Source: an uncultured Chthonomonadaceae bacterium (GTDB lineage Bacteria > Armatimonadota > Fimbriimonadia > Fimbriimonadales > Fimbriimonadaceae). From it: a stretch of 64,000 nt of DNA. The position numbers were made by a program, and so were the translations under genes. Below, one piece after another: positions 6,156-63,159 of the stretch. The notes beneath the pieces are model-generated. The model did no database searches. It was not told the DNA's origin and saw only the letters and a program-made list of their open reading frames with translations. The number at the start of each line of letters is the position of its first letter. Position 1 is the stretch's first letter. The stretch is taken from NCBI GenBank assembly GCA_946479035.1, contig CAMLDW010000004.1, positions 1 through 64,000 on the forward strand, in the 5' to 3' direction.

Positions 6156-6161
6156 CATACT
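6156..6161 (+). promoter_or_regulatory. Leaderless-type -10 (CATACT) for the DinB gene
   Basis: CATACT lies 6 nt upstream of the ATG at 6168, with no Shine-Dalgarno between. This is one of many starts in the window with this arrangement. Confidence 0.5.
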
Positions 6162-6167
6162 AGACAC

Positions 6168-6638
6168 ATGTCTCAAACCATGTGTCAGATGCTTGCTCAA
6201 AACGTGCGGGTCAACAACCGGATGCTGTCGTATGCGATCGAGACGTCGCCCTGTGCGAAGGACTGGTCGCCGGAGATCAAAGGGAAGGGTCGCTCGATGC
6301 TGCAGCAGGCCGACGAGTGCGTGCAGCTCAACCGCTATGTCGCCGCCGAGATCAACGGCAAGAAGGGCTCGTTTTCAGAGACGCCGGTGATCGCCGACTC
6401 TGCCAGCGCGCACAAGGCCGTCGCGGAGAGCGCAGAAGAGCTCGCGAAGGCGCTTGACGGCGCGGACGACTCTGTGCTGCAGCGGCCGGTCGAGTTCCCG
6501 TTCGGCACTTTCCCGACGGCGATCGCCGTGAACATCGCGATGAACAACGCGACGTACCATTGGGGCCAGGTGAACTACATCGAGCTGCTGGACGGCAACA
6601 CTGAGTTCCGGATTCCGCCGGAGTTCGCCGCGCGCTAG
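6168..6638 (+). CDS. DinB-like four-helix protein
   Basis: A 156-residue cytoplasmic protein that resembles the DinB/YfiT metal-binding four-helix bundle family, whose members are often thiol-dependent transferases or of unknown function. Typical features are the N-terminal helix VRVNNRMLSYAI, the EFPFGTFPTAIAVNIA segment and the closing NNATYHWGQVNYIELLDG, where families of this fold usually carry an H-x3-H pair. Here only the first His is seen, so metal binding may be altered. The start at 6168 was chosen because CATACT sits 6 nt upstream; an in-frame start at 6114 would be possible but places the promoter inside the gene. Confidence 0.7.
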   Translation: MSQTMCQMLAQNVRVNNRMLSYAIETSPCAKDWSPEIKGKGRSMLQQADECVQLNRYVAAEINGKKGSFSETPVIADSASAHKAVAESAEELAKALDGADDSVLQRPVEFPFGTFPTAIAVNIAMNNATYHWGQVNYIELLDGNTEFRIPPEFAAR

Positions 6639-6697
6639 CCTGGACAGCACTTTCGCCTCGGAGCAGGGCTCTATACTGAGCCTGCCCGAGGCGAAGA

Positions 6698-7996
6698 ATG
6701 AACTTGCCGACTAGCAGGAGCGTGCTGCGCGCGAGCGCGTTGGCTTGGGCGCTCTTCTGGTTGGCAGCCGCCGCGCTGGTTGTGCAGGGCGTGTCGCTTG
6801 TGCAGCGCGGGAGCAAGGAAGAGAGCGACATCGGTGTGTTCTATCGCACGGGGCTGCTCCTTGACGGTGGCGCAAGCGGGGAGATCTACACGCAGCGCGA
6901 CTCGGTGACGGGGTGGCCGATCGCGATCCCGCCCGCCGGGACGCTGTTCTTTCAGCCCTTCGTGCGGTTTGGGCCGGTCATGTTTTCGGTCGTTTGGGCC
7001 GCGCTCAATCTGCTGCTCGCGGGGCTTGCGCTGCTGGCGCTGCGGGGGCTGTGCTCGAGGCTACAGGGCCCTTTCGTAGGGCTGTTCCCGTTGTTGGGGG
7101 CGGTGTTCCTGTTGCTCGCTGGCGGGAGCGTGCAGGTCGGTCAGTTCAGCCTCATGTTCGCGGCGTGCTGGATTTGCGCGCTTTGGTGCCTAGCTGCGGG
7201 CCGAGTGAAGGCGTCGTCGCTGCTTTGGGCGGTGCCTGCGGCGATCAAGGTGTATCCGCTGCTGCTTTTCGTCGCGCCTCTCTCGGGAGCTCCAGACAGC
7301 CGCGCTATGTTCCGTCGCAGCGCGACCCTGCTTTTGGCGCTCGTCATCGCGTTCGTCGCCGTGCCGTTCGCGTTCTATGGGGCGCGCGCGTGGTCGCTCG
7401 AGACGTCGTTCGTCCAGAACATCGTGTTGGACCCGCACGGACGGATGAAGTGGATGCAGGCGCTGGGAACCACGGCGAACCAGGGGCTGGACGCGGTACT
7501 CATCCGCTACCTTTCGTACTATCCGAAGTTCCACGACGCTTACACGTGGGTGCCGACGCTGCGGTGGGACCTGAACGACGTGCGCGCACTGGGGCACTTA
7601 GTTCGCGCGGCGCTGGTGGCGGTCACTCTGGCCGTTGTCGTAAGGTTCCGCCGTCGTCGCCCCGACCCGACGCTTGAAGATCTGGTCACGCTCGCCGGCG
7701 TGTGGTCGGCGACGCTGTACGTCTGCCTTCCTGAGACGCGCGCTCGGTACGCGGTGTACGCGTTCCTCGGGTTTGTGCCTTTCTTGCTGTTGGTAGTTCG
7801 CGCGAGGGGGGAGAGTTCGTTTTGGGCCTTGTGTCTGTCGTTGGTCGTCTGCTTCTTGCTCGTGCTGGGGGCGGTGCCGTATCCGCTCGACGTGGTGGGA
7901 GCCGGCTTCGTGGGGAGCGTCGGTCTTTGGGTCGCGAGCCTAGTTCGGATCACCCGGGGCGGCGGGGACTATGATCGGGCGGGCCGCGCTTCGTGA
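6698..7996 (+). CDS. GT87-type polyprenyl-sugar glycosyltransferase (DUF2029-like membrane protein)
   Basis: A 432-residue polytopic membrane protein with about ten hydrophobic helices. The N-terminal region after the first helix carries DIGVFYRTGLLLDGG and the luminal-type loop with PPAGTLFFQPF, both typical of the GT87/mannosyltransferase (GT-C fold) family, which use polyprenyl-phosphate sugars to glycosylate envelope molecules. A mid-protein AVPAAIKVYPLLLF segment is also family-like. A TATACT at 6672-6677 and a GAGG at 6687-6690 precede the ATG, so this gene appears to have a normal short leader. It stands alone, convergent to the gene at 8043-8537. The acceptor is unknown. Confidence 0.82.
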   Translation: MNLPTSRSVLRASALAWALFWLAAAALVVQGVSLVQRGSKEESDIGVFYRTGLLLDGGASGEIYTQRDSVTGWPIAIPPAGTLFFQPFVRFGPVMFSVVWAALNLLLAGLALLALRGLCSRLQGPFVGLFPLLGAVFLLLAGGSVQVGQFSLMFAACWICALWCLAAGRVKASSLLWAVPAAIKVYPLLLFVAPLSGAPDSRAMFRRSATLLLALVIAFVAVPFAFYGARAWSLETSFVQNIVLDPHGRMKWMQALGTTANQGLDAVLIRYLSYYPKFHDAYTWVPTLRWDLNDVRALGHLVRAALVAVTLAVVVRFRRRRPDPTLEDLVTLAGVWSATLYVCLPETRARYAVYAFLGFVPFLLLVVRARGESSFWALCLSLVVCFLLVLGAVPYPLDVVGAGFVGSVGLWVASLVRITRGGGDYDRAGRAS

Positions 7997-8012
7997 AGAA
8001 GACGGCCCGCCC
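7977..8012. terminator. Hairpin spanning the GT87 stop codon
   Basis: GGGCGGGCC (7977-7985) pairs perfectly with GGCCCGCCC (8004-8012). The TGA of the GT87 gene lies in the loop. Placed between convergent genes, it could stop transcription from either side; no clear U-tract is present. Confidence 0.5.
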
Positions 8013-8042
8013 AAATCTCCAATGGACGAGGCTCGGCCCGGG

Positions 8043-8537
8043 TCAACCCCGACCGTGCTTGCCCTTTTCGCCTTTGCCGCCGTGCGCCTGGTTGCCGTGC
8101 GACTTGTTGCCGTGGTCCGATCGGACCTCAACGCGGGCATAAGAGGCGTAGTGCCTGTCGTCGCCGCGTGTGCGCCGGTTGCCATAGTCGCGCGACACGT
8201 AGACGGGGCGACGGACAAAGACGGGTTCGCGCACGTACACTGGCCGGTGGATGACACGCACTGGGCGGTCGACCACGAACACAGGGTCGTGGAACAGGTA
8301 GACGGGCCGGGCCACGTAAAACGGCTCACATCGGTCGTAGTAGTGGTCCTCGTAGTAGAACCGGTCGTACCCGTAGTAGGGGTCACCTGAACGCAGGCTC
8401 ACGAACAGCTCGTTGCCGTAGCGATCGTACGTGCTGTACTGGATCGCCGCCGTAACGTGTGTGTTGCTGTGGTGGCCTGTGCCCTGCGAACCGGCCGAAA
8501 TGATCAGCGCGGCTGCAGCTAGAAAGATCAGGTTCAT
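8043..8537 (-). CDS. Secreted protein with tandem RPVYV-type repeats
   Basis: A 164-residue exported protein that I do not recognise. The start at 8537 follows a strong AGGAGGTG Shine-Dalgarno and gives a signal peptide of about 17 residues (MNLIFLAAAALIISAGS). The middle holds a Tyr-rich stretch and then a tandem series of 7-9-residue units ending in PV(Y/F/R)V or similar: ARPVYLF, HDPVFVV, DRPVRVI, HRPVYVR, EPVFVR, RPVYVS. The C-terminal 40 residues are His/Gly/Lys-rich and would be positively charged. An alternating beta-strand repeat is likely. No function can be assigned. Confidence 0.75.
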   Translation of the reverse strand: MNLIFLAAAALIISAGSQGTGHHSNTHVTAAIQYSTYDRYGNELFVSLRSGDPYYGYDRFYYEDHYYDRCEPFYVARPVYLFHDPVFVVDRPVRVIHRPVYVREPVFVRRPVYVSRDYGNRRTRGDDRHYASYARVEVRSDHGNKSHGNQAHGGKGEKGKHGRG

Positions 8538-8573
8538 CAGATTCACCTCCTGCCTAATGCGACGCTCCAGGCT

Positions 8574-8616
8574 GGGCCCATGTTTCCCAAAAGGGCACAT
8601 TGGGCCCGGTTTTTCA
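8574..8616 (+). terminator. Terminator-like hairpin upstream of the MmgE/PrpD gene
   Basis: GGGCCCATGTTTCCC (8574-8588) folds on GGGCACATTGGGCCC (8593-8607) with an AAAA loop and small mismatches, followed by GGTTTTTC. On the plus strand it would stop transcription arriving from the left before the MmgE/PrpD promoter; on the minus strand it would be in the leader of the gene at 8043-8537. Confidence 0.45.
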
Positions 8617-8691
8617 GTCTAACGGCATGGCGGCCCGAGCGCCGGAGAAACCCATGGCAACCAGTACGAATCTAGATTCAGCGGTAGCAGA

Positions 8692-8697
8692 TAGAAT
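8692..8697 (+). promoter_or_regulatory. Leaderless-type -10 (TAGAAT) for the MmgE/PrpD gene
   Basis: TAGAAT lies 7 nt before the ATG at 8705. It decides against the earlier in-frame starts at 8627 and 8654, which lie upstream of it. Confidence 0.55.
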
Positions 8698-8704
8698 CAG
8701 CGCC

Positions 8705-10309
8705 ATGTCCACGAGCGTACGGCTTGGGCGCGACACGAACCAAGCGCTGGGAATCGGCGAGTTTGCCATCGCCTTTATGAGCGGCAAGCTCGGCGAGGGG
8801 CCGAGCGAGAAGGCGCTCGAGCGCGTGCGGATGTTCCACACGGACAGCGTGCTCTGCGGCCTCTCGGCGCTTGCGCTGAAGACGAACGCGCCGACGCTGC
8901 TGCGTAAGGAGGCGCTCGACTACCCTTCGAGCGACGTGGCGCACTGCTTTGGCAGCGATGTGCGCGTGAAGGCTGAGAAGGCGATCGTCGCCAACTGCGC
9001 GGCGGTACGGGAGTGGGACGGTAACGGGACGAACTTCGGCTACAACGCTGCGCGGGGGCACTCTGCAGGCGAGTTCGGCCACAACGACTTTTACCCGGTG
9101 GTGGTGGCCGCCTGCCAGCAGAGGGGCCTCGACGGCGCGACGGCGCTGAGGGCGATGCTCTTGCTGGACGAAATCCGGTGCCGGCTCGCGGAAGTGTTCT
9201 CGCTAAAGTCATACAAATTGGACCATGTCGTGCACGGTGCGATCGGGTCTGCGGCGGTATACGGCGCGCTGATGGGAGCGAGCGCGGAGCAGATCGAGAG
9301 CGCCATCGGGATGTACGTCGCCCATTACATACCTTGGCGCGCGATCCGGGCGGGGAAGCAGCTATCCGACTCGAAGGGCGCTTCGGCGGGGATCTCGGCG
9401 GAGGCGGCGGTCCTGTGCGTGAAGCGTGCGATGGCGGGGTTCGCGGGGCCACGGGACGTCTTCCGCAACCCTGAGGCGATCTTTCGGTACTTCGAGCCGA
9501 CGACGCACGGCCCTGAGAGATGGAAGGAGGAAGGGGACTCTCCGTTCGACCTGGTACTCACGCACTCGGGCGACGACTTCGCCGTGATGGGGATGCACTT
9601 CAAGCTCGGCCTCTACGAGCACCAATCGGCGGGCGCGCTGCAAGGCATGACCGAGCTGCTCGTTGCGCACCCGAAAATGGCGAGCGACGGGGGCAAGAGG
9701 ATCAAGCGGATCAAGATCACCGCGTACGAGCCTGCGTTCGGGATCATTGGGAACCCGGCGAAGATGGACCCGCGGACGCGTCAGAGCGCGGACCATTCGA
9801 TGGCTTACATCGTTGCGACGCTCGTGCGAAAGGCCACTGAGCTTGAAGCGATGCCTTCGACCGCAGACGAGGCGTGGAAGGCACTGATGCTCTCTCCGTA
9901 CGACTACGAAGAGTCCGAGTCATCGATCTTCCATCCGTTGACGCGGTCACTGATGTCGCGGATCGAGTTCTTGCACGGAGGGCCGGACTACGACGCGCGG
10001 TACCCGGACGGGATCCCGACTAGCGTCCACATCGAGGTGGACACACTGCAGTCGGTGGCCGAGGGAGGTGCGAAGGAGATCCATTCTGGGATCGTGATGT
10101 ATCCCGCGGGCCACGCGCGCAACACGACTATGGACCTTGCGGGCCTGCTGGGCCACAAGTGGGCGATGCTGGGTGCGATCGCGCTGCCGGACGGCGGGGA
10201 CGTGACGTTGCTCATCGACCGCTTCGAGCGGATCGGTTCGCTCGACGCCAAGGGAATCGGGGGGATATACGGCGCGGAGATAGCGCAGGGCCGCAAATAC
10301 CGGGGCTGA
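8705..10309 (+). CDS. MmgE/PrpD family protein (2-methylcitrate dehydratase-like)
   Basis: A 534-residue cytoplasmic protein of the MmgE/PrpD family, which includes 2-methylcitrate dehydratase (propionate oxidation) and cis-aconitate decarboxylase. Family phrases include FHTDSVLCGLSALAL near residue 40, the GHSAGEFGHNDFYPVVVAA segment, DHVVHGAIGSAAVYGALMG and the HSMAYIVATLVR region, where family enzymes carry active-site residues. No prpB or prpC lies nearby, so the substrate is uncertain. The start at 8705 is chosen from the TAGAAT 7 nt upstream. The gene is not in an operon; the next gene begins 17 bp later with its own -10-like hexamer. Confidence 0.85.
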   Translation: MSTSVRLGRDTNQALGIGEFAIAFMSGKLGEGPSEKALERVRMFHTDSVLCGLSALALKTNAPTLLRKEALDYPSSDVAHCFGSDVRVKAEKAIVANCAAVREWDGNGTNFGYNAARGHSAGEFGHNDFYPVVVAACQQRGLDGATALRAMLLLDEIRCRLAEVFSLKSYKLDHVVHGAIGSAAVYGALMGASAEQIESAIGMYVAHYIPWRAIRAGKQLSDSKGASAGISAEAAVLCVKRAMAGFAGPRDVFRNPEAIFRYFEPTTHGPERWKEEGDSPFDLVLTHSGDDFAVMGMHFKLGLYEHQSAGALQGMTELLVAHPKMASDGGKRIKRIKITAYEPAFGIIGNPAKMDPRTRQSADHSMAYIVATLVRKATELEAMPSTADEAWKALMLSPYDYEESESSIFHPLTRSLMSRIEFLHGGPDYDARYPDGIPTSVHIEVDTLQSVAEGGAKEIHSGIVMYPAGHARNTTMDLAGLLGHKWAMLGAIALPDGGDVTLLIDRFERIGSLDAKGIGGIYGAEIAQGRKYRG

Positions 10310-10315
10310 TCGGTC

Positions 10316-10321
10316 AATAAT
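10316..10321 (+). promoter_or_regulatory. Leaderless-type -10 (AATAAT) for the gene at 10327
   Basis: AATAAT lies 5 nt before the GTG at 10327 and only 7 nt after the previous stop codon. There is no Shine-Dalgarno. Confidence 0.4.
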
Positions 10322-10326
10322 GGGGC

Positions 10327-11103
10327 GTGGTCATTGCGATAATGGCTCTGACGGTGCAGGGCTCGGCAACCGTGTTCGCCGACGGGTTCGAGTCGGGGAA
10401 GCTCGACGGATGGGGGGACAACCGAGGGACGATGGAGGTCGTTCCGGACGGCGCATACGAGGGGAAGAGGTGCCTCAAGTACACGGGCGAGGTGGGAAAG
10501 GGCGAGGGCGCGCACCTGGTGCGGTGGTTCATGCCTGGGTACGACGAGATCGCGATCAAATGGGCGGTGAAGTTCGCTCCGGACTTCGACCAGGGGACCT
10601 TCATGCACCTTTGCGCGGTGGGCGGCAACAGGACCGACAGCAAGTGGTCCTCGATGGGGCAGGCGGGGAAGAGGCCGAACGGAAGTGACTTTTTCGTAAC
10701 GAACCTGGAACCGTGGAAGGACTATGGACGAAACCCGTCGCCTGGCCGGCTCATGTTCTATTCGTACTGGCCGGAAATGGCGAAGTCGCCGGACGGGATG
10801 TACTGGGGAAACAACCTGCTTTCCGACCCACCGCAGCTCGTGCCTTTGCAGAAGTGGGTGGTGATGTCGCTGTGGATCAAGCTGAATGCGCCAGGAAAGA
10901 GCGACGGCGAGCAGGCGTTCTGGATGGACGGGAAGCTGGGCGGCCATTGGAGGGGAGTGCGGTTCCGCGATTCCGACGTGTTGCGGCTCAACTCGTTCAC
11001 GCTGGACCTTTATCTGCACGACTCGCCAAAGGTGAACACGGTCTGGTTCGACGACGTTGCGATCTCGCGGGAGAAGTTCCCATGGATGGCGCTTGGTGAG
11101 TGA
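10327..11103 (+). CDS. Secreted ConA-like (polysaccharide lyase-type) protein
   Basis: A 258-residue exported protein starting at GTG with a short signal peptide (residues 1-18). The order of segments, ADGFESGKLDGW, then EIAIKWAVKFAPDF, then QKWVVMSLWIKLN, then EQAFWMDGKLGGHWRGVRFR, then NTVWFDDVAIS, resembles the concanavalin-like jelly roll of polysaccharide lyases such as the PL14/PL20 group, in which a beta-sandwich binds an acidic polysaccharide. The match is by pattern only and I cannot point to the catalytic residues, so it may instead be a carbohydrate-binding protein. It is a single gene, convergent to the gene at 11139-12119. Confidence 0.65.
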   Translation: MVIAIMALTVQGSATVFADGFESGKLDGWGDNRGTMEVVPDGAYEGKRCLKYTGEVGKGEGAHLVRWFMPGYDEIAIKWAVKFAPDFDQGTFMHLCAVGGNRTDSKWSSMGQAGKRPNGSDFFVTNLEPWKDYGRNPSPGRLMFYSYWPEMAKSPDGMYWGNNLLSDPPQLVPLQKWVVMSLWIKLNAPGKSDGEQAFWMDGKLGGHWRGVRFRDSDVLRLNSFTLDLYLHDSPKVNTVWFDDVAISREKFPWMALGE

Positions 11104-11138
11104 CCGGTGAGCGTGGGAGCGCTGGAGCCCCGGGGCCG

Positions 11139-12119
11139 TCACTTCTTGAAGGGAATCGACCTAAACTCAACGATCCTCTTTGGCCTTGCTCGCAGTGTGA
11201 ACGTGCGAGTAGCGGAGTGCGAGCGCAGTCCGTAGACCAGGAAGAGGTCCATGCCCGCGAATTCTTTTCCTTGCTCTTCTCCCGGGATGTGCTGCGTGAG
11301 GACCGGTGGGAGGAGCTTTGCGTCTTCGGGAGGATCGTTCGTAACGATCTCGAGCTCTGCGTCGCGCAGTTCGATCGGCAGGGTGAACGTAAAGTAGTAG
11401 CCTTTGTAGTCTACGATCTGTTCGACACCGTTGACCGTCTTGAAGTCGCTGAGGTTCTGATAGCGCATCATCGCGGTGATCTTTCCGTCGAGCAGCTTGT
11501 CCTCAGGCCCGAAGGGGAAGTCGACGATTTTCGTCCATTCGCCCCCTGGCACTTCTAGCCGAAAGTCGAAAGTGGAGTCCTTGGAGTCTTTTGGAAGGAT
11601 CGGTTTGACGATGCGCGCGACGCCGACATAGGCAGCGTCGCCCGTGCCCTGCACAGTGCGGATGCCGAGAGCGTTCGGCAAAAAGGTGCGGTTGACGTCG
11701 GTCCGAAAGTCGTTCGCGGTCGTGGGGCCGCCGGTGAGGCGGAACGCCATTGCAAACGTGCGCCCGTCCTTGTCTTTTCCGAATACCTCGCGGACGTACT
11801 GTTCACCGGACCGTTTGTCGAGGTTCGTCTCGCCTTCTTCTTGCGGCGGTCGGTCGTCAAGGATCTTCCAGAAGAGTTCGGAGCGGGGACGGTCGACGAG
11901 GTGGCCCTCGGCGTCCCAGACCTGGCCCAGGGGGTCGGAGAGGTCGAGCGCGCCGACCAGCTCGATCGCGCCGCCACCGGGAAAGCTCGCCTTGCCGTGC
12001 GCGGCTGTGACTACGATGGCCGGCTTGAGTCCGAACTGGGCGAGAGGGTGGTCGCCGGTCGTGTCCTGAGCGGAGGCCGACGGCGCGAAGAGCAAGGATG
12101 CGATGAGGAGCGCGCCCAT
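11139..12119 (-). CDS. Secreted protein of unknown function
   Basis: A 326-residue protein with a signal peptide (MGALLIASLLFAPSASAQ). The mature part looks all-beta, with alternating hydrophobic and charged residues and no Cys cluster or catalytic motif I recognise. An in-frame ATG at 12131 overlaps a TAAAAT hexamer (minus strand of 12130-12135), so the start at 12119, 10 nt after it, is preferred. It is divergent from the sortilin-like gene, and their promoters share about 70 bp. I cannot assign a function. Confidence 0.75.
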   Translation of the reverse strand: MGALLIASLLFAPSASAQDTTGDHPLAQFGLKPAIVVTAAHGKASFPGGGAIELVGALDLSDPLGQVWDAEGHLVDRPRSELFWKILDDRPPQEEGETNLDKRSGEQYVREVFGKDKDGRTFAMAFRLTGGPTTANDFRTDVNRTFLPNALGIRTVQGTGDAAYVGVARIVKPILPKDSKDSTFDFRLEVPGGEWTKIVDFPFGPEDKLLDGKITAMMRYQNLSDFKTVNGVEQIVDYKGYYFTFTLPIELRDAELEIVTNDPPEDAKLLPPVLTQHIPGEEQGKEFAGMDLFLVYGLRSHSATRTFTLRARPKRIVEFRSIPFKK

Positions 12120-12129
12120 CTTCCAACCC

Positions 12130-12135: not shown

Positions 12136-12174
12136 GCACCGCTTTGGCCTTGTCAGGGGCCCGGGAGGTTCGGG

Positions 12175-12180
12175 CATACT
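12175..12180 (+). promoter_or_regulatory. Leaderless-type -10 (CATACT) for the sortilin-like gene
   Basis: CATACT lies 9 nt before the ATG at 12190, with no Shine-Dalgarno. It excludes the longer in-frame start at 12103. Confidence 0.5.
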
Positions 12181-12189
12181 CGGCACACG

Positions 12190-16223: not shown

Positions 16224-16229
16224 ATTATG
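16224..16229 (-). promoter_or_regulatory. Leaderless-type -10 (CATAAT) for holA
   Basis: On the minus strand CATAAT is followed by 6 nt and then the TTG start of holA. The hexamer overlaps the TAA stop (16225-16227) of the upstream transglutaminase gene, so holA could be expressed apart from the operon. Confidence 0.5.
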
Positions 16230-21921: not shown

Positions 21922-21943
21922 AGATTACCAGCGGTGGCATAAT
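21922..21943. promoter_or_regulatory. Overlapping divergent -10 hexamers of the two ROK genes
   Basis: CATAAT (21938-21943, plus) lies 6 nt before the GTG at 21950. TAATCT (minus strand of 21922-21927) lies 13 nt before the ATG at 21908. The 41-bp gap leaves no room for separate -35 regions outside the coding sequences, so the two promoters must interfere or be co-regulated. Confidence 0.55.
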
Positions 21944-30479: not shown

Positions 30480-31040
30480 TTACGCTTCTCCCGTCGCTGC
30501 GACCCACAGGACCCTGAACCTCTCCCTTGCGGTGTGGAGCCTTGATCGGACCGTGCCCACAGGCACGCGCATCATGTCCGCGACCTCCTCGTAGCTGAGC
30601 TGCTCCATCTCTCGCAGCACCAGCGTCAGTCGCAGCTCTGGCGAAAGCTCTTCCAGGAGGTCGTGGATGACGACCTTGGTCTCGATCTGCTGACCGCGGC
30701 TCGGCTCGGGCTTGTCCACGACCATGGACTCCGTCTTTCTTGAGCGGAGCCGGTCCATGCACAGCCTGATGCAGATCTTGTAGATGTACCCCGAGAAGGC
30801 GCTGTCCTCGCGCAGCTTGTGCAGCTCGCGGAACGCTTTGAGGAACGCCTCTTGGGTCACGTCCTCTGCCTCAAACGAGTCGCGAAGGACGTTGGCGGCC
30901 ACGCGCACGAGCCGGGTGCGGTGCTTGGCGATCAGGGCGGCCATGGCGGACTCGTCCCCATGGCGGCAGCGCTCGATCCACTGTAACTCCTCGAGCGCCT
31001 GCTCGTTCCTTGACTGTATGGCGACTTGTGCCCTGTCCAT
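30480..31040 (-). CDS. ECF (group IV) RNA polymerase sigma factor
   Basis: A 186-residue sigma-70 family protein with only regions 2 and 4. Region 2 includes DVTQEAFLKAFRELHKLRED near residue 62, with the AFSGYIYKICIRLCMDRLR helix that recognises the -10. Region 4 includes LPSELRL-like ELSPELRLTLVLREMEQLSYEEVADMM near 132 and the recognition helix VPVGTVRSRLHTARERFR. AGGAG lies 5 nt before the ATG and TAGAAT (31055-31060, minus) is the likely -10, so the operon is transcribed from a normal-looking promoter with a leader. It heads a seven-gene operon. Confidence 0.93.
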   Translation of the reverse strand: MDRAQVAIQSRNEQALEELQWIERCRHGDESAMAALIAKHRTRLVRVAANVLRDSFEAEDVTQEAFLKAFRELHKLREDSAFSGYIYKICIRLCMDRLRSRKTESMVVDKPEPSRGQQIETKVVIHDLLEELSPELRLTLVLREMEQLSYEEVADMMRVPVGTVRSRLHTARERFRVLWVAATGEA

Positions 31041-38148: not shown

Positions 38149-38168
38149 GCGAGGAGGCTACCACGGGC

Positions 38169-38174
38169 TAGACT
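38169..38174 (+). promoter_or_regulatory. Leaderless-type -10 (TAGACT) for the HD gene
   Basis: TAGACT lies exactly 6 nt before the ATG at 38181, with no Shine-Dalgarno. Confidence 0.5.
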
Positions 38175-38180
38175 GCGCGC

Positions 38181-38782: not shown

Positions 38783-38788
38783 TAGAAT
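38783..38788 (+). promoter_or_regulatory. Leaderless-type -10 (TAGAAT) for the amidohydrolase gene
   Basis: TAGAAT lies exactly 6 nt before the ATG at 38795, with no Shine-Dalgarno. Confidence 0.55.
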
Positions 38789-40996: not shown

Positions 40997-41425
40997 TCAA
41001 CGTTGCGCCTTGCGGTCCAACCGCACAGGGTGGGTGTCGAACCCGGCAGGGTCGGTGAACAGCAGGGAGTCGTCCTTCTGCCAGTCCAAAGTCAGGTCCC
41101 GGTTCATCGCCTGGGTGCCAGGGCCGGAAAGCGAGACGGGCTGGCCGAACCTCGTCTTGATAGTTAGGAAGGCCCGGTCTCCGCCGGAGCGGAAGTCGCC
41201 GGTCTCTGGGATGCCGCTGCGGACCATTTCGAAGGACCCGTCCGGCTTGAGGGTCAACCGGATTCGGTTGATCGTCGCCTTGACCGGGTCGTCCGGAATG
41301 CGGTTGCCCACGAGCTGCAGGTCGCCTTGCCACTCGCCGTACCACTGATGCGCACCGCCGCACCCGCAGAGGGCCAATAGCGTCGGGCCCAGCAAGAAAA
41401 AAGCTACTGTCATACTCCTTGACAT
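40997..41425 (-). CDS. Small lipoprotein of unknown function
   Basis: A 142-residue predicted lipoprotein. The signal peptide MSRSMTVAFFLLGPTLLALC ends at a Cys in a lipobox-like LALC-G setting. The mature part is a beta-rich domain (WYGEWQGDLQLVG, then TLKPDGSFEMVRSG) that looks like a small lipocalin-like or META-like barrel. Starts at 41434 and 41413 are also possible; 41425 is preferred because it keeps positively charged residues before the hydrophobic core. Its ATG overlaps the purL ATG on the other strand in a single CATG. Confidence 0.68.
   Translation of the reverse strand: MSRSMTVAFFLLGPTLLALCGCGGAHQWYGEWQGDLQLVGNRIPDDPVKATINRIRLTLKPDGSFEMVRSGIPETGDFRSGGDRAFLTIKTRFGQPVSLSGPGTQAMNRDLTLDWQKDDSLLFTDPAGFDTHPVRLDRKAQR
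41411..41416 (+). promoter_or_regulatory. Leaderless-type -10 (CATACT) for purL
   Basis: CATACT lies 7 nt before the purL ATG at 41424. It is inside the coding sequence of the divergent lipoprotein gene. Confidence 0.5.
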
Positions 41426-50163: not shown

Positions 50164-51046
50164 GCACCCGCAAGAACAACAGCGCCTTGCGCCGCACGCT
50201 TGCGACCGTGCAGGCCGTCAGCACAGTCGCAACCGACCAGACGAGGAACCGCATCAGCGCACCGAATCTGTCCAGAAGGAGCGCCACAATCGCCGCGAAC
50301 CGACCGTGGTGCAAAAGGAAGTAAAGCTCTTTCCCTCGGTTGTAGCGCGCGACCGCCTCCCACCGCTCCTGACTGCTGGAGCCCAAGTCGTGCCGGAACA
50401 CTGCGCCGGGCACGTAGACGATCCGCCCGTGCTTTCGAAGTCGGCGGCAAAGCTCTGTGTCTTCGCAATATAGGAAGAATCGCTCGTCGAACCGCTCCAA
50501 CGTTCTCAACATCAGGCACGCGCCCATCACCTGCTCTACGTCGTAGGTGTCCTTTGCAGGGCCGGAGAGCAATCGCCGTGAGAGCCAATAAGGAGAGAGC
50601 AGGGCGCTGCGCGGAAAGAGCCTCTCAAGGTACGCCTGCTCGCAGAACAGCGCCCACAAGGTCAGTGCCCCGCAGCATGATTCTTGCAGCCGCCCGTCCG
50701 GGAACTGCAGCCTTCCGCCGCACGCTACAACGTCCGGGTGTGCGTCCATGACCCTGACCATGAGCCGCAAGGCGCCAGGTTGCGCCGCTGCGTCGCTGTT
50801 CAGGCACAGCGCCAAGTCGCCCGTCATCGCCTCCAATCCTTGGTTGTTCGCCGCTCCGAAGCCCCTGTTGGTGGCATTGCGTATCAGCCGCACAGAAGGA
50901 AACTCCGCCTCCACCATCTCCGCCGAGCCGTCGCCACTGGCATTGTCAACGACTATCGCTTCGTCCGCATCCCCGAGCGACCGCAAGCAGCGCCGCAAAG
51001 GCTCGCGCGTGTTGTAGCTGACGACGATCACGGAGAGCCGGGACAC
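50114..51046 (-). CDS. Family 2 glycosyltransferase (rhamnosyltransferase-like)
   Basis: A 310-residue GT-A enzyme beginning LSVIVVSYNTREPLRRCL near residue 4, with VDNASGDGS near 33, the GFGAANNQGLEA donor-site segment near 62, CLNSDAAAQPGAL (NSD in place of DxD) near 81, and a C-terminal hydrophobic stretch that may anchor it. It resembles WbbL-type rhamnosyltransferases that extend envelope polysaccharides, consistent with the adjacent Wzm/Wzt pair. It is convergent to the ATPase gene with a 50-bp overlap of coding ends, and divergent from greA. Confidence 0.9.
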   Translation of the reverse strand: MSRLSVIVVSYNTREPLRRCLRSLGDADEAIVVDNASGDGSAEMVEAEFPSVRLIRNATNRGFGAANNQGLEAMTGDLALCLNSDAAAQPGALRLMVRVMDAHPDVVACGGRLQFPDGRLQESCCGALTLWALFCEQAYLERLFPRSALLSPYWLSRRLLSGPAKDTYDVEQVMGACLMLRTLERFDERFFLYCEDTELCRRLRKHGRIVYVPGAVFRHDLGSSSQERWEAVARYNRGKELYFLLHHGRFAAIVALLLDRFGALMRFLVWSVATVLTACTVASVRRKALLFLRVLTVRASGPPLPRDSAE

Positions 51047-51071
51047 CGCCCTTGTTCTACCTGAGCCGTGC

Positions 51072-51077
51072 TAAAAT
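51072..51077 (+). promoter_or_regulatory. Leaderless-type -10 (TAAAAT) for greA
   Basis: TAAAAT lies 9 nt before the greA ATG at 51087 and 25 nt after the start of the divergent GT2 gene, with no Shine-Dalgarno. Confidence 0.45.
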
Positions 51078-51086
51078 AGCACCCGT

Positions 51087-52503: not shown

Positions 52504-52509
52504 TATCCT
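52504..52509 (+). promoter_or_regulatory. Leaderless-type -10 (TATCCT) for kdsB
   Basis: TATCCT lies exactly 6 nt before the GTG at 52516 and fixes that start over the in-frame GTG at 52465. Confidence 0.5.
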
Positions 52510-56874: not shown

Positions 56875-56880
56875 TATTCT
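56875..56880 (+). promoter_or_regulatory. Leaderless-type -10 (TATTCT) for the M16 gene pair
   Basis: TATTCT lies exactly 6 nt before the GTG at 56887, with no Shine-Dalgarno. Confidence 0.5.
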
Positions 56881-58029: not shown

Positions 58030-59216
58030 TCGCCGCCCTTGCGCTCCTTGCTACCACCGCGCCGATTAGGGTCCTCGAAATGGTCGAGGACAGCCCCTAC
58101 TTCGTCGTGCAAGCCTACATCAAAGCCCCTGACATGACCGAGCGCGAGGCGGCGGCGTGGCAGGTGCTAGGACGCGTACTGCTCCAAGGAACAGTCGAGT
58201 ACACCCCGCAGGTCATCCGTGACTATGGATCACAGGCAGGCATGTCGCCGAGCGTAACGGTCATGCCCGACTTTATGCGCCTGCAGATCGTGCTCCCAAA
58301 GGGGGGGCTCAAGCTTGCGGGCGACCTCGTTTTCGCCATCCTCACGCGCCCTGCCCTGCGCGACGAAGACGTCGCGAAAGTGATCGCGGACTTGTCCAAG
58401 GCGGAAAAGACGGCGTGGGCTTCCGCGCTCACAGGTATCGACTACCGCTATGACCGGCTACGCCAGGGCGACGTGAAGAACCTCTGGATTCGTACGGTGC
58501 GGCCAGAGAACCTGAACTTCGTCGTCGGTGGCGGCTTCGACCCGGGCGCGGGCGAGCAAGAGATACAGAGCAGGTTTGAGAACTGGTCTGCTCCGCGCGA
58601 CACGGGCAGTCCGCGCTTCGACAGCCCTGCCAAGCCCGTCACCTCGTTCGACGGACCGATCTCGACGTTCGTGCTCGCGGGCCGCACCATGACCCCGGCG
58701 AGCCCGAGCGGCGCGGCCAAGCTTCTGAGCGTGTTCGGGCTCGGCGTCGGCAAGACCTCCGCCATGCACCGTGTGCTGCGCGAACAGCTGGGCCTCTCGT
58801 ACCTTCAGGCCGCCGTGCTTTGGCCGACCAAGCAGGGATGGACCCCCAACCTCGTGATGGTCCGCAAGACGGAGAGCGACGAAGCTAAGTACGCCACGAC
58901 GATGAAGGACGCCCTTTCCAAGGACATCGAATCCTGGAACGCAGACACGCTGAAGCGCGCGCAGGCGCTCGCTGCCGCAGCCTTCTCGCGCAACCTCGAA
59001 AACTCACCGTTCTGGCTCAGCCCCGACGGCCCGATGACGCAGTCGCTCTTCGACCGCTGCGCCTGGCGCGGCTACCTAGAGATGGCCGGCTCCGGCGCCC
59101 TGCGCGAAAGCGTTCTCGTCGGTGCAATGCAGAACGTCGACATCGACCAGCTCAAGGCCGCGGCCAAGTCGCTTCTCGACGAGTGCAACGTCGGCTGGGT
59201 ACCGGGCCGCCCGTAG
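58026..59216 (+). CDS. M16-family peptidase-like partner lacking the zinc motif
   Basis: A 396-residue protein with the M16 fold order (strand YFVVQAYIKAPDMTEREAAAWQVLGRVLL, then MPDFMRLQIVLPKGGLKLAGDLVF) but no HxxEH; the place where it should occur reads AAAWQVLGRVLLQGT. The C-terminal half has SVFGLGVGKTSAMHRVLREQLGLSYLQAAVLW, matching the substrate-binding R/Y region (REQLGLSY). It is probably the inactive subunit of a heterodimer with the upstream gene, to which it is translationally coupled. Confidence 0.85.
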   Translation: MIAALALLATTAPIRVLEMVEDSPYFVVQAYIKAPDMTEREAAAWQVLGRVLLQGTVEYTPQVIRDYGSQAGMSPSVTVMPDFMRLQIVLPKGGLKLAGDLVFAILTRPALRDEDVAKVIADLSKAEKTAWASALTGIDYRYDRLRQGDVKNLWIRTVRPENLNFVVGGGFDPGAGEQEIQSRFENWSAPRDTGSPRFDSPAKPVTSFDGPISTFVLAGRTMTPASPSGAAKLLSVFGLGVGKTSAMHRVLREQLGLSYLQAAVLWPTKQGWTPNLVMVRKTESDEAKYATTMKDALSKDIESWNADTLKRAQALAAAAFSRNLENSPFWLSPDGPMTQSLFDRCAWRGYLEMAGSGALRESVLVGAMQNVDIDQLKAAAKSLLDECNVGWVPGRP

Positions 59217-59269
59217 AACTACCGGATTGTTTTCGCGCGCGCGCAGAACGGAAGTACCATTAGTGTGCG

Positions 59270-60064
59270 ATGCGTCGCGCAGTTACCACCCTCATCGCCG
59301 TCTCCGTCCTCCTCATGGCCGGTTGCGGCGGAAGCAGCCTCTCCCCCGGGATGGTCGAGGTGCGGCTCGTCGACGCCCCGACGAACCTTGTCTCATCCTT
59401 CTTCGTCACGATCGATCGGATCGATGTGCTCGTCGGCGCCGACTGGCAAACGATCGCACTGCCAGGAAAGCGCGTGGACCTGCTTGCGCTGCGCGACGTG
59501 CCGATCCCCATCGCCAACACTGGCCTCATCGCCGGCTCGTATACGAAGCTCCGCATGAAGGTCCGCGACGCCAGCGTGATCGATTCCAACGGCGTTCAGA
59601 CGGTCGACATCCCTGCTGCCATCCAAAACGGGTTTGAGATCCCGTGCGCCTTTGACATCGTCGAAGCCAAGGTCACAAACCTGCTCATGGACTTCAACGC
59701 CGCGCAGTCTCTCGTCAACCAGAACGGCGGTTACTTGCTGCAACCCGTGGTCCCAACAGTCGTGCAGAGCGATAGCGGCACGATTACCGGCACGGCCCTC
59801 TCGCCGTTCGGCCTGCCTCTTTCGGACGCCAAGGCCTCTGCGCGGTACACGGCCGGAGCCAGCTACCCGCTCGGGTTCGAGATCAATACTAGCGTAACTG
59901 GCACCGACGGTGCGTTCAAGATATGGGCTCTGCTTCCGGGCGAGTACACGCTCAACCTCGTGTGGAAGGATCCCTTCACGAATACTGTCTACAACGCCAC
60001 GGTTCCGGGCGTCATCGTGACGGCAGGGCAGGACTCGTCGATCGGCGACGTCACGTTGAACTGA
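59270..60064 (+). CDS. DUF4382-type lipoprotein with carboxypeptidase-regulatory-like domain
   Basis: A 264-residue lipoprotein (signal peptide ending LLMAGC near residue 19). Residues about 28-160 match the DUF4382 pattern: VEVRLVDAPTNLVSSFFVTIDRIDV, then VDLLALRDVP and GLIAGSYTKLRMKV. A second beta-sandwich from about 165 (GTALSPFGLPLSDAKASA, then GAFKIWALLPGEYTLNL) is a carboxypeptidase-regulatory-like domain. Function is unknown; such proteins sit on the outer or inner membrane surface. TACCAT lies 9 nt upstream. Its end overlaps the convergent nuclease gene by 14 bp. Confidence 0.82.
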   Translation: MRRAVTTLIAVSVLLMAGCGGSSLSPGMVEVRLVDAPTNLVSSFFVTIDRIDVLVGADWQTIALPGKRVDLLALRDVPIPIANTGLIAGSYTKLRMKVRDASVIDSNGVQTVDIPAAIQNGFEIPCAFDIVEAKVTNLLMDFNAAQSLVNQNGGYLLQPVVPTVVQSDSGTITGTALSPFGLPLSDAKASARYTAGASYPLGFEINTSVTGTDGAFKIWALLPGEYTLNLVWKDPFTNTVYNATVPGVIVTAGQDSSIGDVTLN

Positions 60065-60830
60065 CCGGCGCGGGCTTGAACTCCGGGTGCTTCGAGCAGA
60101 GCTGCAGAAAGTCGCAGGTCGGACAAAGCTCCTTTGGCACCGGGACCATGGACTGGTAGTCGCGGCGTAGGATCTCCTCGCCCAACACGACTAGGTCCTT
60201 TTGGAACACCGCGAGGCCCTTTGCACCGAAGTTCACGGTCGCCCGCGCACCGGTGCGAAGCGCGACGATCGATGCGCACACGTCCTTCTCCGGGTGCTTG
60301 CTGCGCAAGAGCAGCGCGTAGCAGTTCATCGCGAGGTCCGTAGCGATGTCTTCTTCGTTCACGGTCTGCCTGCCAGACTTGTAGTCCACGATCTCCAACG
60401 CACCGTCATTGCGCTCGTCGACGCGGTCGAGCCGACCGATCAGCACGAACGGCCCTAGATCCGCGCGCAACAGCTTTTCGATGTAGAGCGTCTTTGCCGT
60501 CACGGGCTGTGCCTTGAAGTTCTCGACGTAAGACTCGATGATCGCCTTGCCTTCGGCCATCGCCTCCATCATCTCCTCTTGGCTCGAGTACCCGGCCTCG
60601 ATCCAGCTCTCCTCGAGCGCAGCGACCGCCTCGTGCGCGGTCGTTACGCCCTTGTCGCCCTCGTCGTGGAACCGCTGGAGCACGCTGTGCAGGGTCGAGC
60701 CGAAGCTGTAGTAGCTCTTCGAGCGCAGGTACCACTTGCCGCGCTCGTCCACATAGGTCCACTTGTACTTGTCTGGACAGGCCAAGTATGTGGAGATCTT
60801 GGAAGGGCTCAGCGACGGCTTTTTCGCCAC
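60051..60830 (-). CDS. PD-(D/E)XK nuclease with Fe-S cysteines (RecB/Cas4/AddB-like)
   Basis: A 259-residue stand-alone nuclease. It has SPSKISTYLACPDKYKW with Cys 18, a GSTLHSVLQRFH helix, the catalytic Asp of IGRLDRVDER near residue 132 and the D-x-K pair of EIVDYKSGR near 145. The C-terminus CPTCDFLQLC adds three Cys (C-x2-C-x5-C), so with Cys 18 it can hold a 4Fe-4S cluster, as in AddB and Cas4. No CRISPR array, cas gene or helicase is nearby. A role in DNA end processing is likely. Confidence 0.87.
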   Translation of the reverse strand: MAKKPSLSPSKISTYLACPDKYKWTYVDERGKWYLRSKSYYSFGSTLHSVLQRFHDEGDKGVTTAHEAVAALEESWIEAGYSSQEEMMEAMAEGKAIIESYVENFKAQPVTAKTLYIEKLLRADLGPFVLIGRLDRVDERNDGALEIVDYKSGRQTVNEEDIATDLAMNCYALLLRSKHPEKDVCASIVALRTGARATVNFGAKGLAVFQKDLVVLGEEILRRDYQSMVPVPKELCPTCDFLQLCSKHPEFKPAPVSST

Positions 60831-60905
60831 GCCCCCATTGTGACAGCGGCAGCGGGAGGGCTAGGTTGGGATGGCCCCGCACTCCCCTCATCGTACAGTC
60901 CGTGC

Positions 60906-60911
60906 CACAAT
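60906..60911 (+). promoter_or_regulatory. Leaderless-type -10 (CACAAT) for the GH20 gene
   Basis: CACAAT lies 7 nt before the ATG at 60919 and decides against the longer in-frame start at 60871. Confidence 0.4.
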
Positions 60912-60918
60912 CCATGCG

Positions 60919-63159
60919 ATGCTCTCGCTCCTCCTTGCCGCCGTCCTCGCGCAGCCACAAGAGCCCGCCGTTTTCCCTCGGCCCCAGCGCCTCGACCTGT
61001 TGAGCGGCACGCCGTTCGAGATCAAGAAGGGGATCACCGTGCTTTCTCGAGAGTCCTCGCCCGCGATGCACCACCTCACCGACCTTCTTGCAAGGTGTAC
61101 AGGCGAAAAGCCGCGCGTCGTCAAGTCCGAGGTCGGGCTGCGCGGGCTGCCGGTCGTGACCGTCCAGAAGAGCAGCGACCTCGGCGCGGAGGACTACCGC
61201 CTATTTGCCCAGGCGAACGACATGGTCGTCAGCTATGGCGGAGACGCGGGGCTCTTCTATGCAGTCCAGACCCTGCGCCAGCTGCTTCCAGACGAGATCG
61301 AGTCACCGGCGCTTGCAAAGGGCACAAAGTGGACAGTCCCAGCCGTGCGCGTTGCAGACCGCCCGCGGTTCTCATGGCGCGGCATGCACCTCGACGTCAG
61401 CCGTCACTTCTTCCCGGTGACGTTCATCAAGCGGTACATCGACTACATCGCGATGAACAAGATGAACGTGTTCCATTGGCACCTCGTCGACGACGGGGGC
61501 TGGCGCATGGAGGTCAAGAAGTACCCGCTCCTGACTGCGGTCGGCTCGGTGCGCGCGGGCACGGGCGAGGGCTGGTCCTATAGCGACATCCGCTTTCTTT
61601 ATAACGACGAGAAGCCACGCTATGGCGGCTACTACTCGCAGGAGCAGATCAGGGAAATCGTCAAGTACGCCGCGGACAAGTACGTCACGATCGTCCCCGA
61701 GATCGAGATGCCCGGCCATACCTCGCCCTCGATCACGGTCTATCCGGACCTCGGTTGCGACGGCGTTGCCCCAGCGAGCGAGAAGGGAAGGACCAACACC
61801 AACGTCTATTGCGCCGGAAAGGAGTCGACGTTCACGTTCCTGGAGGACGTGCTGACGGAGACGATGGACCTCTTTCCATCCAAGTGGATCCACATCGGCG
61901 GCGACGAGGTGGACAAAGGCTATTGGAACAACTGCCCACAGTGCCAAAAGCGGATGAAGGACGAAGACCTCAAGGACTCCAATGAGCTGCAGAGCTACTT
62001 TGTCAAGCGGATCGAAAAGTTCCTGGTCGCGCACGGCCGCCGTCTGATCGGGTGGGACGAGATTCTTGAGGGGGGCCTCGCGCCGGAGGCGACAGTCATG
62101 TCCTGGCGCGGCATCGAAGGCGGCATCGCCGCGGCTCAGGCCGGGCACGACGTCGTGATGTCCCCGACCTCCCACTGCTACTTCGACTACTCCTATGCCT
62201 CGACCTCGACGCAAAAGGTCTATGGCTGGGAGCCCGTTCCCGACGCACTGGGCCCCATCGAAGCGAAGCACGTGCTCGGTGGGCAGGCCAACGTCTGGAC
62301 GGAGTGGATCCCGACGGTCGAGCGCGCCGAGTACATGATCTTCCCGCGCATGCTTGCGACGGCTGAGGTGCTCTGGACCGGCAAGGCGCGACGCGACTGG
62401 GACAGCTTCAACGGACGCCTTGCGCGCGCGTTCAACCGCCTGGACCTGATGGGCGCCAACTACTTTATCCCCGGGCCCGACGTGGACTTTTCGGCTGCCG
62501 TGTTCCAGACCTCGACGACGATCTCTGCCCGCGCTCCGCAGGGCACGCCGTTCACCCTGCGCTACTCGATGGACGGCAAAGACCCGGGCGCGCAGTCGCC
62601 GGCCTACACTGGCCCGATCAGCGTCGCCGAAAGTGCGACGGTCGCCTTCGCGTTCGTCTCCAAGAAGGGCAACACGGGAGACGTCGTTCGAGTGCAGTGC
62701 ATTAAGGCTAGCCCCGGGACAGCCGATGGGCTCGTTGATGGACTCGACTTTGCGGTGTATGAGGGCGCGTGGCAGAAGGTCCCCGACTTCAGCACGCTCA
62801 AACCCGCTAAGACCGGCAGCGCTACGCAGGTCGGGCTTGAGCAACGCACGCGCGACGACGAGTTCGCCGTGCGCTTCACCGGGTACCTCAACGTGGCGCA
62901 AGACGGCGTCTACACCTTCCGCGTTGGAAGCGACGACGGTTCTGTGCTCAAGATCGCGGGCGCGACCGTCATCGACAACGACGGGCTCCATGGCTACAAC
63001 GAAAAAGACGGCGCGGTAAGACTTGGCAAGGGCGTCTATCCGATCGAGATCGCGATGTTCGAGTCTGGCGGAGCAGAGAGGCTCACGTTTCAGATGATGC
63101 CTCCCGGCGGCGCGTGGTCCGCGGCCCCTGCAGGCGCGTTCTTGCGCAAGCCCCAATAG
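60919..63159 (+). CDS. GH20 beta-N-acetylhexosaminidase with PA14 domain
   Basis: A 746-residue exported glycosidase (signal peptide MLSLLLAAVLAQ). Domains: GH20b N-terminal alpha/beta (FPRPQRLDLLSG onward), GH20 barrel with FSWRGMHLDVSRHFF near residue 150, MNKMNVFHWHLVDDGGWR near 179, and the catalytic Asp-Glu in WIHIGGDEVDKG near 327, then a C-terminal fold (FTLRYSMDGKDPG) and a PA14-like domain from about 620 (GYLNVAQDGVYTFRVGSDDGS, a typical carbohydrate-binding PA14 phrase). It would release GlcNAc from chitin-like glycans or peptidoglycan fragments outside the cytoplasm. Confidence 0.94.
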   Translation: MLSLLLAAVLAQPQEPAVFPRPQRLDLLSGTPFEIKKGITVLSRESSPAMHHLTDLLARCTGEKPRVVKSEVGLRGLPVVTVQKSSDLGAEDYRLFAQANDMVVSYGGDAGLFYAVQTLRQLLPDEIESPALAKGTKWTVPAVRVADRPRFSWRGMHLDVSRHFFPVTFIKRYIDYIAMNKMNVFHWHLVDDGGWRMEVKKYPLLTAVGSVRAGTGEGWSYSDIRFLYNDEKPRYGGYYSQEQIREIVKYAADKYVTIVPEIEMPGHTSPSITVYPDLGCDGVAPASEKGRTNTNVYCAGKESTFTFLEDVLTETMDLFPSKWIHIGGDEVDKGYWNNCPQCQKRMKDEDLKDSNELQSYFVKRIEKFLVAHGRRLIGWDEILEGGLAPEATVMSWRGIEGGIAAAQAGHDVVMSPTSHCYFDYSYASTSTQKVYGWEPVPDALGPIEAKHVLGGQANVWTEWIPTVERAEYMIFPRMLATAEVLWTGKARRDWDSFNGRLARAFNRLDLMGANYFIPGPDVDFSAAVFQTSTTISARAPQGTPFTLRYSMDGKDPGAQSPAYTGPISVAESATVAFAFVSKKGNTGDVVRVQCIKASPGTADGLVDGLDFAVYEGAWQKVPDFSTLKPAKTGSATQVGLEQRTRDDEFAVRFTGYLNVAQDGVYTFRVGSDDGSVLKIAGATVIDNDGLHGYNEKDGAVRLGKGVYPIEIAMFESGGAERLTFQMMPPGGAWSAAPAGAFLRKPQ

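What the first reader, a model, noticed from the sequence alone, without database searches (positions are those of the whole stretch)
6156..60919. Widespread leaderless-type gene starts with a fixed -10 to start-codon spacing
At least 13 genes have a TANNNT-like hexamer 5-9 nt before the start codon and no Shine-Dalgarno: 6168 (CATACT, 6 nt), 8705 (TAGAAT, 7), 10327 (AATAAT, 5), 12190 (CATACT, 9), 16217 minus (CATAAT, 6), 21950 (CATAAT, 6), 38181 (TAGACT, 6), 38795 (TAGAAT, 6), 41424 (CATACT, 7), 51087 (TAAAAT, 9), 52516 (TATCCT, 6), 56887 (TATTCT, 6) and 60919 (CACAAT, 7). With a start of transcription about 6-7 nt after the -10, the mRNA would begin at or next to the start codon. Genes inside operons or with signal peptides often keep an AGGAG instead (8537, 31040, 43763). 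Leaderless mRNAs with such motifs are established in Deinococcus and Actinobacteria; their extent in this lineage is my inference.
Basis: partly seen in the sequence, partly recalled or inferred. Interest (0 to 1): 0.7.

Follow-up and report, generated by a model that had tools for sequence, protein, structure and literature searches.

The report
Leaderless gene starts in Fimbriimonadia bacteria
In this little-known group of bacteria, roughly one gene in six to one in three appears to be copied into a message that begins right at the protein start, with no landing strip for the ribosome; this is known in some other bacteria, and appears here as a trait of one class while the sister groups sampled use the ordinary signal.

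Summary
All 13 hexamers lie where stated, none with a Shine-Dalgarno (SD) 4-mer. A gene finder blind to upstream sequence picks 12 of the 13 starts. The window is from a Fimbriimonadaceae relative, Armatimonadota. Over the window and seven relatives, 209 of 1240 starts have a GG[T/C]ANA[A/C]T-like -10 box at 5-9 nt, against 57 of 12263 internal in-frame ATG/GTG. Distance has a sharp lower edge at 6 nt and a tail to about 12. Marks of a promoter that starts at the codon: pyrimidine at -1, few TTG starts, rarity inside operons and with SD, and the same box before 23 of 31 tRNA genes. At purL the box is 6-7 nt from ATG in 22 of 22 Fimbriimonadia sequences examined; in 20 other Armatimonadota, 16 have SD and 2 the box. 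Eight other Armatimonadota genomes show no clear peak. This is TA-led leaderless expression, known from Deinococcus-Thermus and Actinobacteria, here typical of one class. 5'-end mapping is lacking. New member of a known kind.

The parts
6156..6161 (+). -10 box CATACT, 6 nt before ATG 6168
   Evidence: score 3.7, below cut; gene finder prefers start 6189
8692..8697 (+). -10 box TAGAAT, 7 nt before ATG 8705 (MmgE/PrpD family)
10316..10321 (+). AATAAT, 5 nt before GTG 10327; probably not a real -10
   Evidence: score 0.6
12175..12180 (+). -10 box GG-CATACT, 9 nt before ATG 12190 (similarity to F510_1955-family glycosylhydrolase, below that model's cut-off)
16224..16229 (-). -10 box CATAAT, 6 nt before TTG 16217 (DNA polymerase III delta C-terminal domain)
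21938..21943 (+). -10 box GG-CATAAT, 6 nt before GTG 21950 (ROK family)
   Evidence: same box and spacing in G001
38169..38174 (+). -10 box TAGACT, 6 nt before ATG 38181 (HD domain); divergent partner at 38155-38160
   Evidence: G001 has TACAAT at 6 nt
38783..38788 (+). -10 box TAGAAT, 6 nt before ATG 38795 (amidohydrolase-like)
   Evidence: G001 has TATCCT at 7 nt; two more distant orthologues (G002, G014) have no box
41411..41416 (+). -10 box CATACT, 7 nt before ATG 41424 (purL)
   Evidence: [T/C]ANNNT at 6-7 nt in 22 of 22 sequences examined
51072..51077 (+). -10 box TGC-TAAAAT, 9 nt before ATG 51087 (GreA/GreB family)
   Evidence: [T/C]ANNNT at 6-12 nt in 21 of 21 sequences examined
52504..52509 (+). 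-10 box GG-TATCCT, 6 nt before GTG 52516 (cytidylyltransferase)
56875..56880 (+). -10 box GG-TATTCT, 6 nt before GTG 56887 (M16 peptidase-like)
60906..60911 (+). -10 box CACAAT, 7 nt before ATG 60919 (glycosyl hydrolase 20)
   Evidence: the G001 orthologue has no TANNNT at 5-10 nt

Best explanation
These are promoters, most likely of the housekeeping sigma type, whose -10 box (consensus G-G-[T/C]-A-N-A-[A/C]-T) ends 6 to about 12 nt before the start codon, so that transcription begins at the first base of the start codon or up to a few bases before it, and the mRNA has no room for a Shine-Dalgarno sequence. A frequent G at promoter position -14 (TGN at greA) and little or no -35 box suggest extended -10 recognition. 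Ribosomes presumably engage the 5'-terminal AUG or GUG directly, as for known leaderless mRNAs. Genes inside operons more often use Shine-Dalgarno, with an intact anti-Shine-Dalgarno. The arrangement is typical of class Fimbriimonadia. Shown by computation: motif, positions, conservation at two genes, contrast with other Armatimonadota sampled. Inferred: transcription start, sigma factor, mode of ribosome binding.
For: Positional peak in all 8 groups with a blind gene finder: 209 of 1240 starts vs 57 of 12263 internal codons and 12 of 1240 on the opposite strand. Unsupervised EM gives GGTANAAT/GGTANACT as top motif in 6 of 8 groups and in the pool; mixture weight 0.30. Pyrimidine at -1 in 61 of 79 genes with strict TANNNT at d=6 vs 500 of 998 without TANNNT at 5-10 nt; TTG starts 0 of 79 vs 79 of 998. 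Motif in 120 of 440 genes whose upstream neighbour is on the other strand, 24 of 367 with a same-strand neighbour closer than 30 nt; Shine-Dalgarno 4-mer in 16 of 209 with motif vs 371 of 1031 without. Same box 4-20 nt before 23 of 31 tRNA genes, which are not translated. purL 22 of 22, greA 21 of 21. TANNNT ratio 0-1.3 in 8 other Armatimonadota genomes, 5.5 in D. deserti plasmids, 1.3 in E. coli.
Against: No 5'-end data. 660 of 1240 starts have neither motif nor SD 4-mer, so a third mode or poor start calls remain. EM did not give the motif as top in G020 and G014, though counts there show the peak. Conservation over all orthologue pairs in register is modest: both 8, one 23, none 134. The matrix was trained on the same 8 groups; in named loci outside them 37 hits vs 5.0 expected, and five of these loci have none at 5-9 nt (L009, L012, L016, L017, L018). 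The TTG effect weakens with the matrix (8 of 209 vs 78 of 1031, p 0.053), with [T/C]ANNNT at 6 nt it is 3 of 116, and the window's 16217 is itself a TTG start at 6 nt. TTGACA-like hexamers at -35 are in excess in two groups (G001 0.31 vs 0.10, G014 0.36 vs 0.13). Two of 20 purL genes outside the class also have the box at 6 nt.
Confidence: 0.91

Rival explanations
1. The box is not a promoter but a ribosome-recruiting AU-rich element (S1-type or Bacteroidetes-like) in a longer leader.
For: AT-rich biases upstream of starts in some phyla may be S1 sites (PMC5397173, passages read); Shine-Dalgarno is often absent here.
Against: The same box precedes 23 of 31 tRNA genes; sharp edge at 6 nt; pyrimidine at -1 with the start codon as +1; rarity inside operons, where a ribosome site would still be needed.
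Confidence: 0.04
2. The box is a real promoter element but mostly makes short-leadered mRNAs (2-8 nt) translated by some other route. This overlaps the best explanation at its edge, so the odds do not sum to one.
For: The tail at 8-12 nt and greA, where 10 of 21 have strict TANNNT at 9 nt and the range is 6-12.
Against: The mode is 6 nt and the initiator signature is strongest there: C at -1 is 63% at d=6, then 46, 40 and 32% at d=7, 8, 9, and 34% without motif. Leaders of a few nt are usually counted as leaderless (M. tuberculosis: within 5 bp, PMC3898074 passage).
Confidence: 0.25
3. Artefact: start codons were chosen because a TA...T hexamer stood near, or AT-rich intergenic sequence gives chance hits.
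Against: The gene finder never sees upstream sequence; internal codons, opposite strand and distant positions are low; 8 sister genomes processed the same way show no clear peak.
Confidence: 0.01

Closest known systems
TA-led leaderless genes of Deinococcus-Thermus and Actinobacteria (Zheng et al. 2011, PMC3160421, passages read)
   Same: TANNNT about 12 bp upstream of the start, used by tens of percent of genes in those clades.
   Different: Here the middle of the box is informative (A, then A or C) although 6 of 8 groups are above 58% G+C. Armatimonadota is not named in the table passage I saw, which is cut at 'Other Bacteria'.
-10-motif adjacent to ORFs in Deinococcus-Thermus (Zhong et al. 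2025, PMC12340547, sections 7, 11 and 12 read)
   Same: Box about 6-7 bp before the ORF, -35 not needed, almost a third of genes, conserved between species.
   Different: There tested by mutation, RpoD interaction and reporter; here by sequence only. Most frequent form TACACT there; GGTANAMT here.
Leaderless transcriptome of Mycobacterium tuberculosis (Cortes et al. 2013, PMC3898074, passages read)
   Same: TANNNT without a conserved -35; C most common at -1; leaderless and Shine-Dalgarno genes coexist.
   Different: Start sites mapped there, not here. Fimbriimonadia keep bS21, while the control genomes Corynebacterium glutamicum, Thermus composti and Deinobacterium chartae gave no bS21 match.
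Low Shine-Dalgarno use in Fimbriimonadia (PMC10783764, passages read)
   Same: A table lists 25 for class Fimbriimonadia and 70 for Chthonomonadetes of the same phylum; the column appears to be the percentage of genes using the anti-SD interaction.
   Different: The passages I read do not link this class to leaderless transcription.

Membership tests
TA-led leaderless genes of bacteria | TANNNT-like signal about 10-12 bp upstream of start, above background | tested here: met
TA-led leaderless genes of bacteria | No Shine-Dalgarno at the same genes | tested here: met
   16 of 209 vs 371 of 1031
TA-led leaderless genes of bacteria | Commoner at first genes of transcription units | tested here: met
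   120 of 440 vs 60 of 413 vs 24 of 367
TA-led leaderless genes of bacteria | Transcription starts at the start codon | not testable with these tools
   only indirect: -1 pyrimidine and start-codon use at d=6
TA-led leaderless genes of bacteria | mRNA translated without a leader | not testable with these tools
   none
Deinococcus-type -10-adjacent promoter | No -35 box required or present | tested here: inconclusive
   pooled TTGACA-like at spacers 15-19: 0.188 vs 0.147 per site, n=213; but 0.31 vs 0.10 in G001 (n=29) and 0.36 vs 0.13 in G014 (n=25)
Deinococcus-type -10-adjacent promoter | Recognised by the housekeeping sigma factor | not tested
   inferred from use at tRNA genes
Extended -10 promoters | TGN before the box | tested here: not met
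   18 of 213 pooled; but 17 of 21 at greA by eye
Extended -10 promoters | G at promoter -14 | tested here: met
   0.67 in matrix; 19 of 22 at purL, column -15. Also before TANAMT at 15-70 nt (39 of 90) and in sister groups (57 of 103), vs 49 of 89 at 6-9 nt, so not special to leaderless starts

The most novel reading that the evidence does not exclude
The ancestor of class Fimbriimonadia, inside a phylum whose other sampled members use Shine-Dalgarno leaders, slid its promoters toward gene starts across the whole genome, shortening leaders of mRNAs and perhaps of pre-tRNAs alike, with largely -35-independent -10 recognition, while keeping anti-Shine-Dalgarno, bS21 and S1. That would make it a within-phylum switch of initiation mode that can be followed gene by gene.
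Probability: 0.35. Interest if true: 0.6.

Novelty: new member of a known kind. Interest (0 to 1): 0.45.

Why it matters
It adds a class of bacteria to those with large-scale leaderless expression and shows a contrast inside one phylum, at the same gene (purL). That gives a way to ask which change in promoter placement or ribosome permits the switch, and it matters in practice: gene starts in these genomes should be called with a -10 model as well as a Shine-Dalgarno model.

Tried and rejected
Led nowhere or against: unsupervised EM in G020 and G014 gave other, weakly defined motifs. A general -35 box: not seen in the pool, but an excess in two groups. GG as a leaderless-specific mark: rejected, it also precedes distant boxes and boxes in sister groups. 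Ribosomal correlates: bS21 present in all 14 Fimbriimonadia of the phylum draw; S1 matches in 31 of 31 class genomes and 61 of 61 phylum genomes, none over the model's curated cut-off, mostly over the same model stretch in both; CCTCC intact in all 33 16S tails printed. None of these explains the switch. A third footprint gene (38181) was dropped: only 8 of 61 genomes had it. One search failed by a script error and was rerun. tRNA and Rfam scans of the window found nothing. A weak excess in Chloroflexota loci (18 hits vs 7.9 expected in 227 genes) was not pursued; Zheng et al. list 4 of 12 Chloroflexi genomes with leaderless genes.

Rows and choices: genes with open starts or less than 80 nt upstream were dropped; 20 of 1240 genes have no known upstream neighbour and are not in the operon split. 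Named loci outside the 8 groups exclude L001 and L006, but L019 is another stretch of G008, a training genome. L032 is G053, a class genome, yet was counted with the other Armatimonadota; this raises that control slightly. That the other 107 genomes of the phylum draw lie outside the class is my inference: the 14 shared handles are exactly the first 14 of the class list. For purL, L319's ATG one codon upstream of the match was used, and two of the 22 sequences share their last 40 bases (21 distinct). In one search the start codon was taken by nearness to the match.
Full report
What the window is. No whole genome is held for it. Its DnaE is 79% identical to that of a Fimbriimonadaceae metagenome assembly (CRAIB_MAG79, L006, handle G001) and about 50-63% to other Fimbriimonadia. 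It is 63.6% G+C and has no tRNA or Rfam match.

The observation. All 13 hexamers and distances are as written, and none of the 13 has a Shine-Dalgarno 4-mer. I wrote a gene finder that uses only codon usage and start-codon type, never the upstream sequence; it called 55 genes and chose 12 of the 13 starts (6189 instead of 6168). Sixteen of 55 window genes have the motif at 5-9 nt against 0.6 expected from positions 20-69, and 3 of 544 internal in-frame ATG/GTG have it.

I sampled about 200 kb from each of seven relatives (with L001 and L006). Strict TANNNT at 4-9 nt: 11 hits at 55 starts (window), then 33 at 179, 35 at 191, 43 at 170, 31 at 169, 23 at 157, 29 at 159 and 31 at 160, against 0.7-2.3% at internal codons. 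With the matrix, 209 of 1240 starts against 57 of 12263 internal codons and 12 of 1240 on the opposite strand. The matrix was trained on these groups; in named Fimbriimonadia loci outside them, 37 hits at 5-9 nt in 232 genes against 5.0 expected, and with plain TANNNT 39 against 8.9. Matrix counts at d = 4, 5, 6, 7, 8, 9 are 3, 5, 77, 54, 37, 36: a sharp edge at 6, then a tail. Unsupervised EM found the motif as top in 6 of 8 groups and in the pool, but not in G020 and G014. The mixture weight is 0.30.

Why a promoter that starts at the codon. If the last T of the box is -7, d=6 puts +1 on the first base of the codon. Bacterial starts favour pyrimidine at -1 and purine at +1 (recalled; also PMC3898074 passage). 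The base before the codon is a pyrimidine in 61 of 79 genes with strict TANNNT at d=6 and in 500 of 998 without TANNNT at 5-10 nt; TTG starts are 0 of 79 and 79 of 998. The TTG effect is weaker with looser definitions: 3 of 116 with [T/C]ANNNT at d=6, 8 of 209 against 78 of 1031 with the matrix (p 0.053), and the window's own 16217 is a TTG start at 6 nt. The C preference at -1 fades as d grows: 63, 46, 40, 32% at d = 6, 7, 8, 9, against 34% without motif. The motif is found in 120 of 440 genes whose upstream neighbour is on the other strand, 60 of 413 with a same-strand gap of 30 or more, and 24 of 367 with a smaller gap; Shine-Dalgarno 4-mers run the other way, 23, 31 and 41%. Motif and Shine-Dalgarno tend to exclude each other: 16 of 209 against 371 of 1031. 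The same box stands 4-20 nt before 23 of 31 tRNA genes in Fimbriimonadia loci, 23 hits in 17 positions against 4 in 51 positions further up, so it is not a ribosome site. In other Armatimonadota 5 hits are found before 32 tRNAs, but the matrix is tuned to Fimbriimonadia.

Form of the promoter. In the pool there is little sign of a -35 box: TTGACA-like hexamers at spacers 15-19 sum to 0.188 per site against 0.147 elsewhere, n=213; G001 (0.31 vs 0.10) and G014 (0.36 vs 0.13) do show an excess. G is common at -14 and -13 (0.67 and 0.60), but also before boxes 15-70 nt away and in sister groups, so it belongs to the promoter, not to leaderlessness. A few tRNA genes have TTGACA-like hexamers at the usual spacing (L005, L178, L145).

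Two genes followed through the class. At purL, 22 sequences (window, G001 and 20 more of the 59 class genomes with a match) all have [T/C]ANNNT at 6-7 nt, 18 of them strict TANNNT; one has a Shine-Dalgarno 4-mer; background is 0.02 per position. At greA, 21 sequences (window and 20 of 61 genomes) all have it at 6-12 nt, 18 strict, 10 at 9 nt, one with a Shine-Dalgarno 4-mer; by eye 17 of 21 have TGN before the box. So spacing is nearly fixed at purL and looser at greA.

Extent. Eight other Armatimonadota genomes (100 kb each, 80 kb for G089) give observed-to-expected ratios of 0 to 1.3 for TANNNT at 5-9 nt and an SD-like motif as top in each; with the matrix 0 to 1.6. D. deserti plasmids give 5.5, E. 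coli 1.3. For purL in 20 other Armatimonadota (of 104 such genomes with a match), 16 have a Shine-Dalgarno 4-mer and 2 (G120, G088) have the box at 6 nt; five (L326-L330) carry TATAAT 39 nt upstream plus an SD-like 4-mer. Some presumably deep members of the class look more Shine-Dalgarno-rich (L018, L020, L032), on few genes.

Machinery. CCTCC is intact in all 33 16S tails printed, 13 of them Fimbriimonadia; bS21 is present in 14 of 14 Fimbriimonadia of the phylum draw; an S1-like protein in 31 of 31 class genomes. The cell therefore keeps the ordinary route and seems to add the leaderless one. What made the switch possible is open.

Literature. Searches for leaderless with Armatimonadetes, leaderless with Armatimonadota, and Fimbriimonas ginsengisoli with transcription gave listings in which I found no report of leaderless transcription in this group; of those papers I opened only PMC10783764 (passages) and PMC4072686 (term search), the rest I saw as listings. 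PMC10783764 lists class Fimbriimonadia at 25 and Chthonomonadetes at 70 in a table of anti-SD use. The F. ginsengisoli genome paper has no 'leaderless', 'Shine' or 'promoter' in its main text (PMC4072686). The GeneMarkS-2 and D. deserti papers are not held, so an entry for Fimbriimonas there cannot be ruled out; the bacterial-domain survey in PMC12340547 (section 11) may also include it in supplementary figures that I did not see.

Verdict.

Noticed in passing
window 38149-38180: A 32-bp gap between two divergent genes (redoxin and HD domain) holds a -10 box for each, both exactly 6 nt from their ATG, also so in G001. Any -35 boxes would have to lie inside the opposite gene.
   Followed up: partly
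L041, L043, L061, L070 (Chloroflexota loci): Weak excess of the -10 box at 5-9 nt in some Dehalococcoidia and Anaerolineae loci: 18 hits against 7.9 expected in 227 genes over 17 loci.
   Followed up: no
L342 (G120) and L344 (G088): purL with GGTATAAT or GGTATACT 6 nt before ATG in Armatimonadota outside the class, in an otherwise SD-type genome for G120.
   Followed up: no
16S 3' flank, L081-L085, L209, L218, L220-L225: The TTTCTAAGG stretch after CCTCC, seen in most other Armatimonadota tails printed, is replaced in these Fimbriimonadia; helix 45 near the tail also shows a paired change in most of them (by eye).
   Followed up: no
window 30480-31040 (-): ECF-type sigma factor gene with an SD-like CAGGAG start.
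   Followed up: no
window 50164-51086: A 923-nt stretch without a called gene or Rfam match, upstream of greA.
   Followed up: no
window 65-140: GC-rich self-complementary sequence near the start of the window, possibly a small repeat element (by eye).
   Followed up: no
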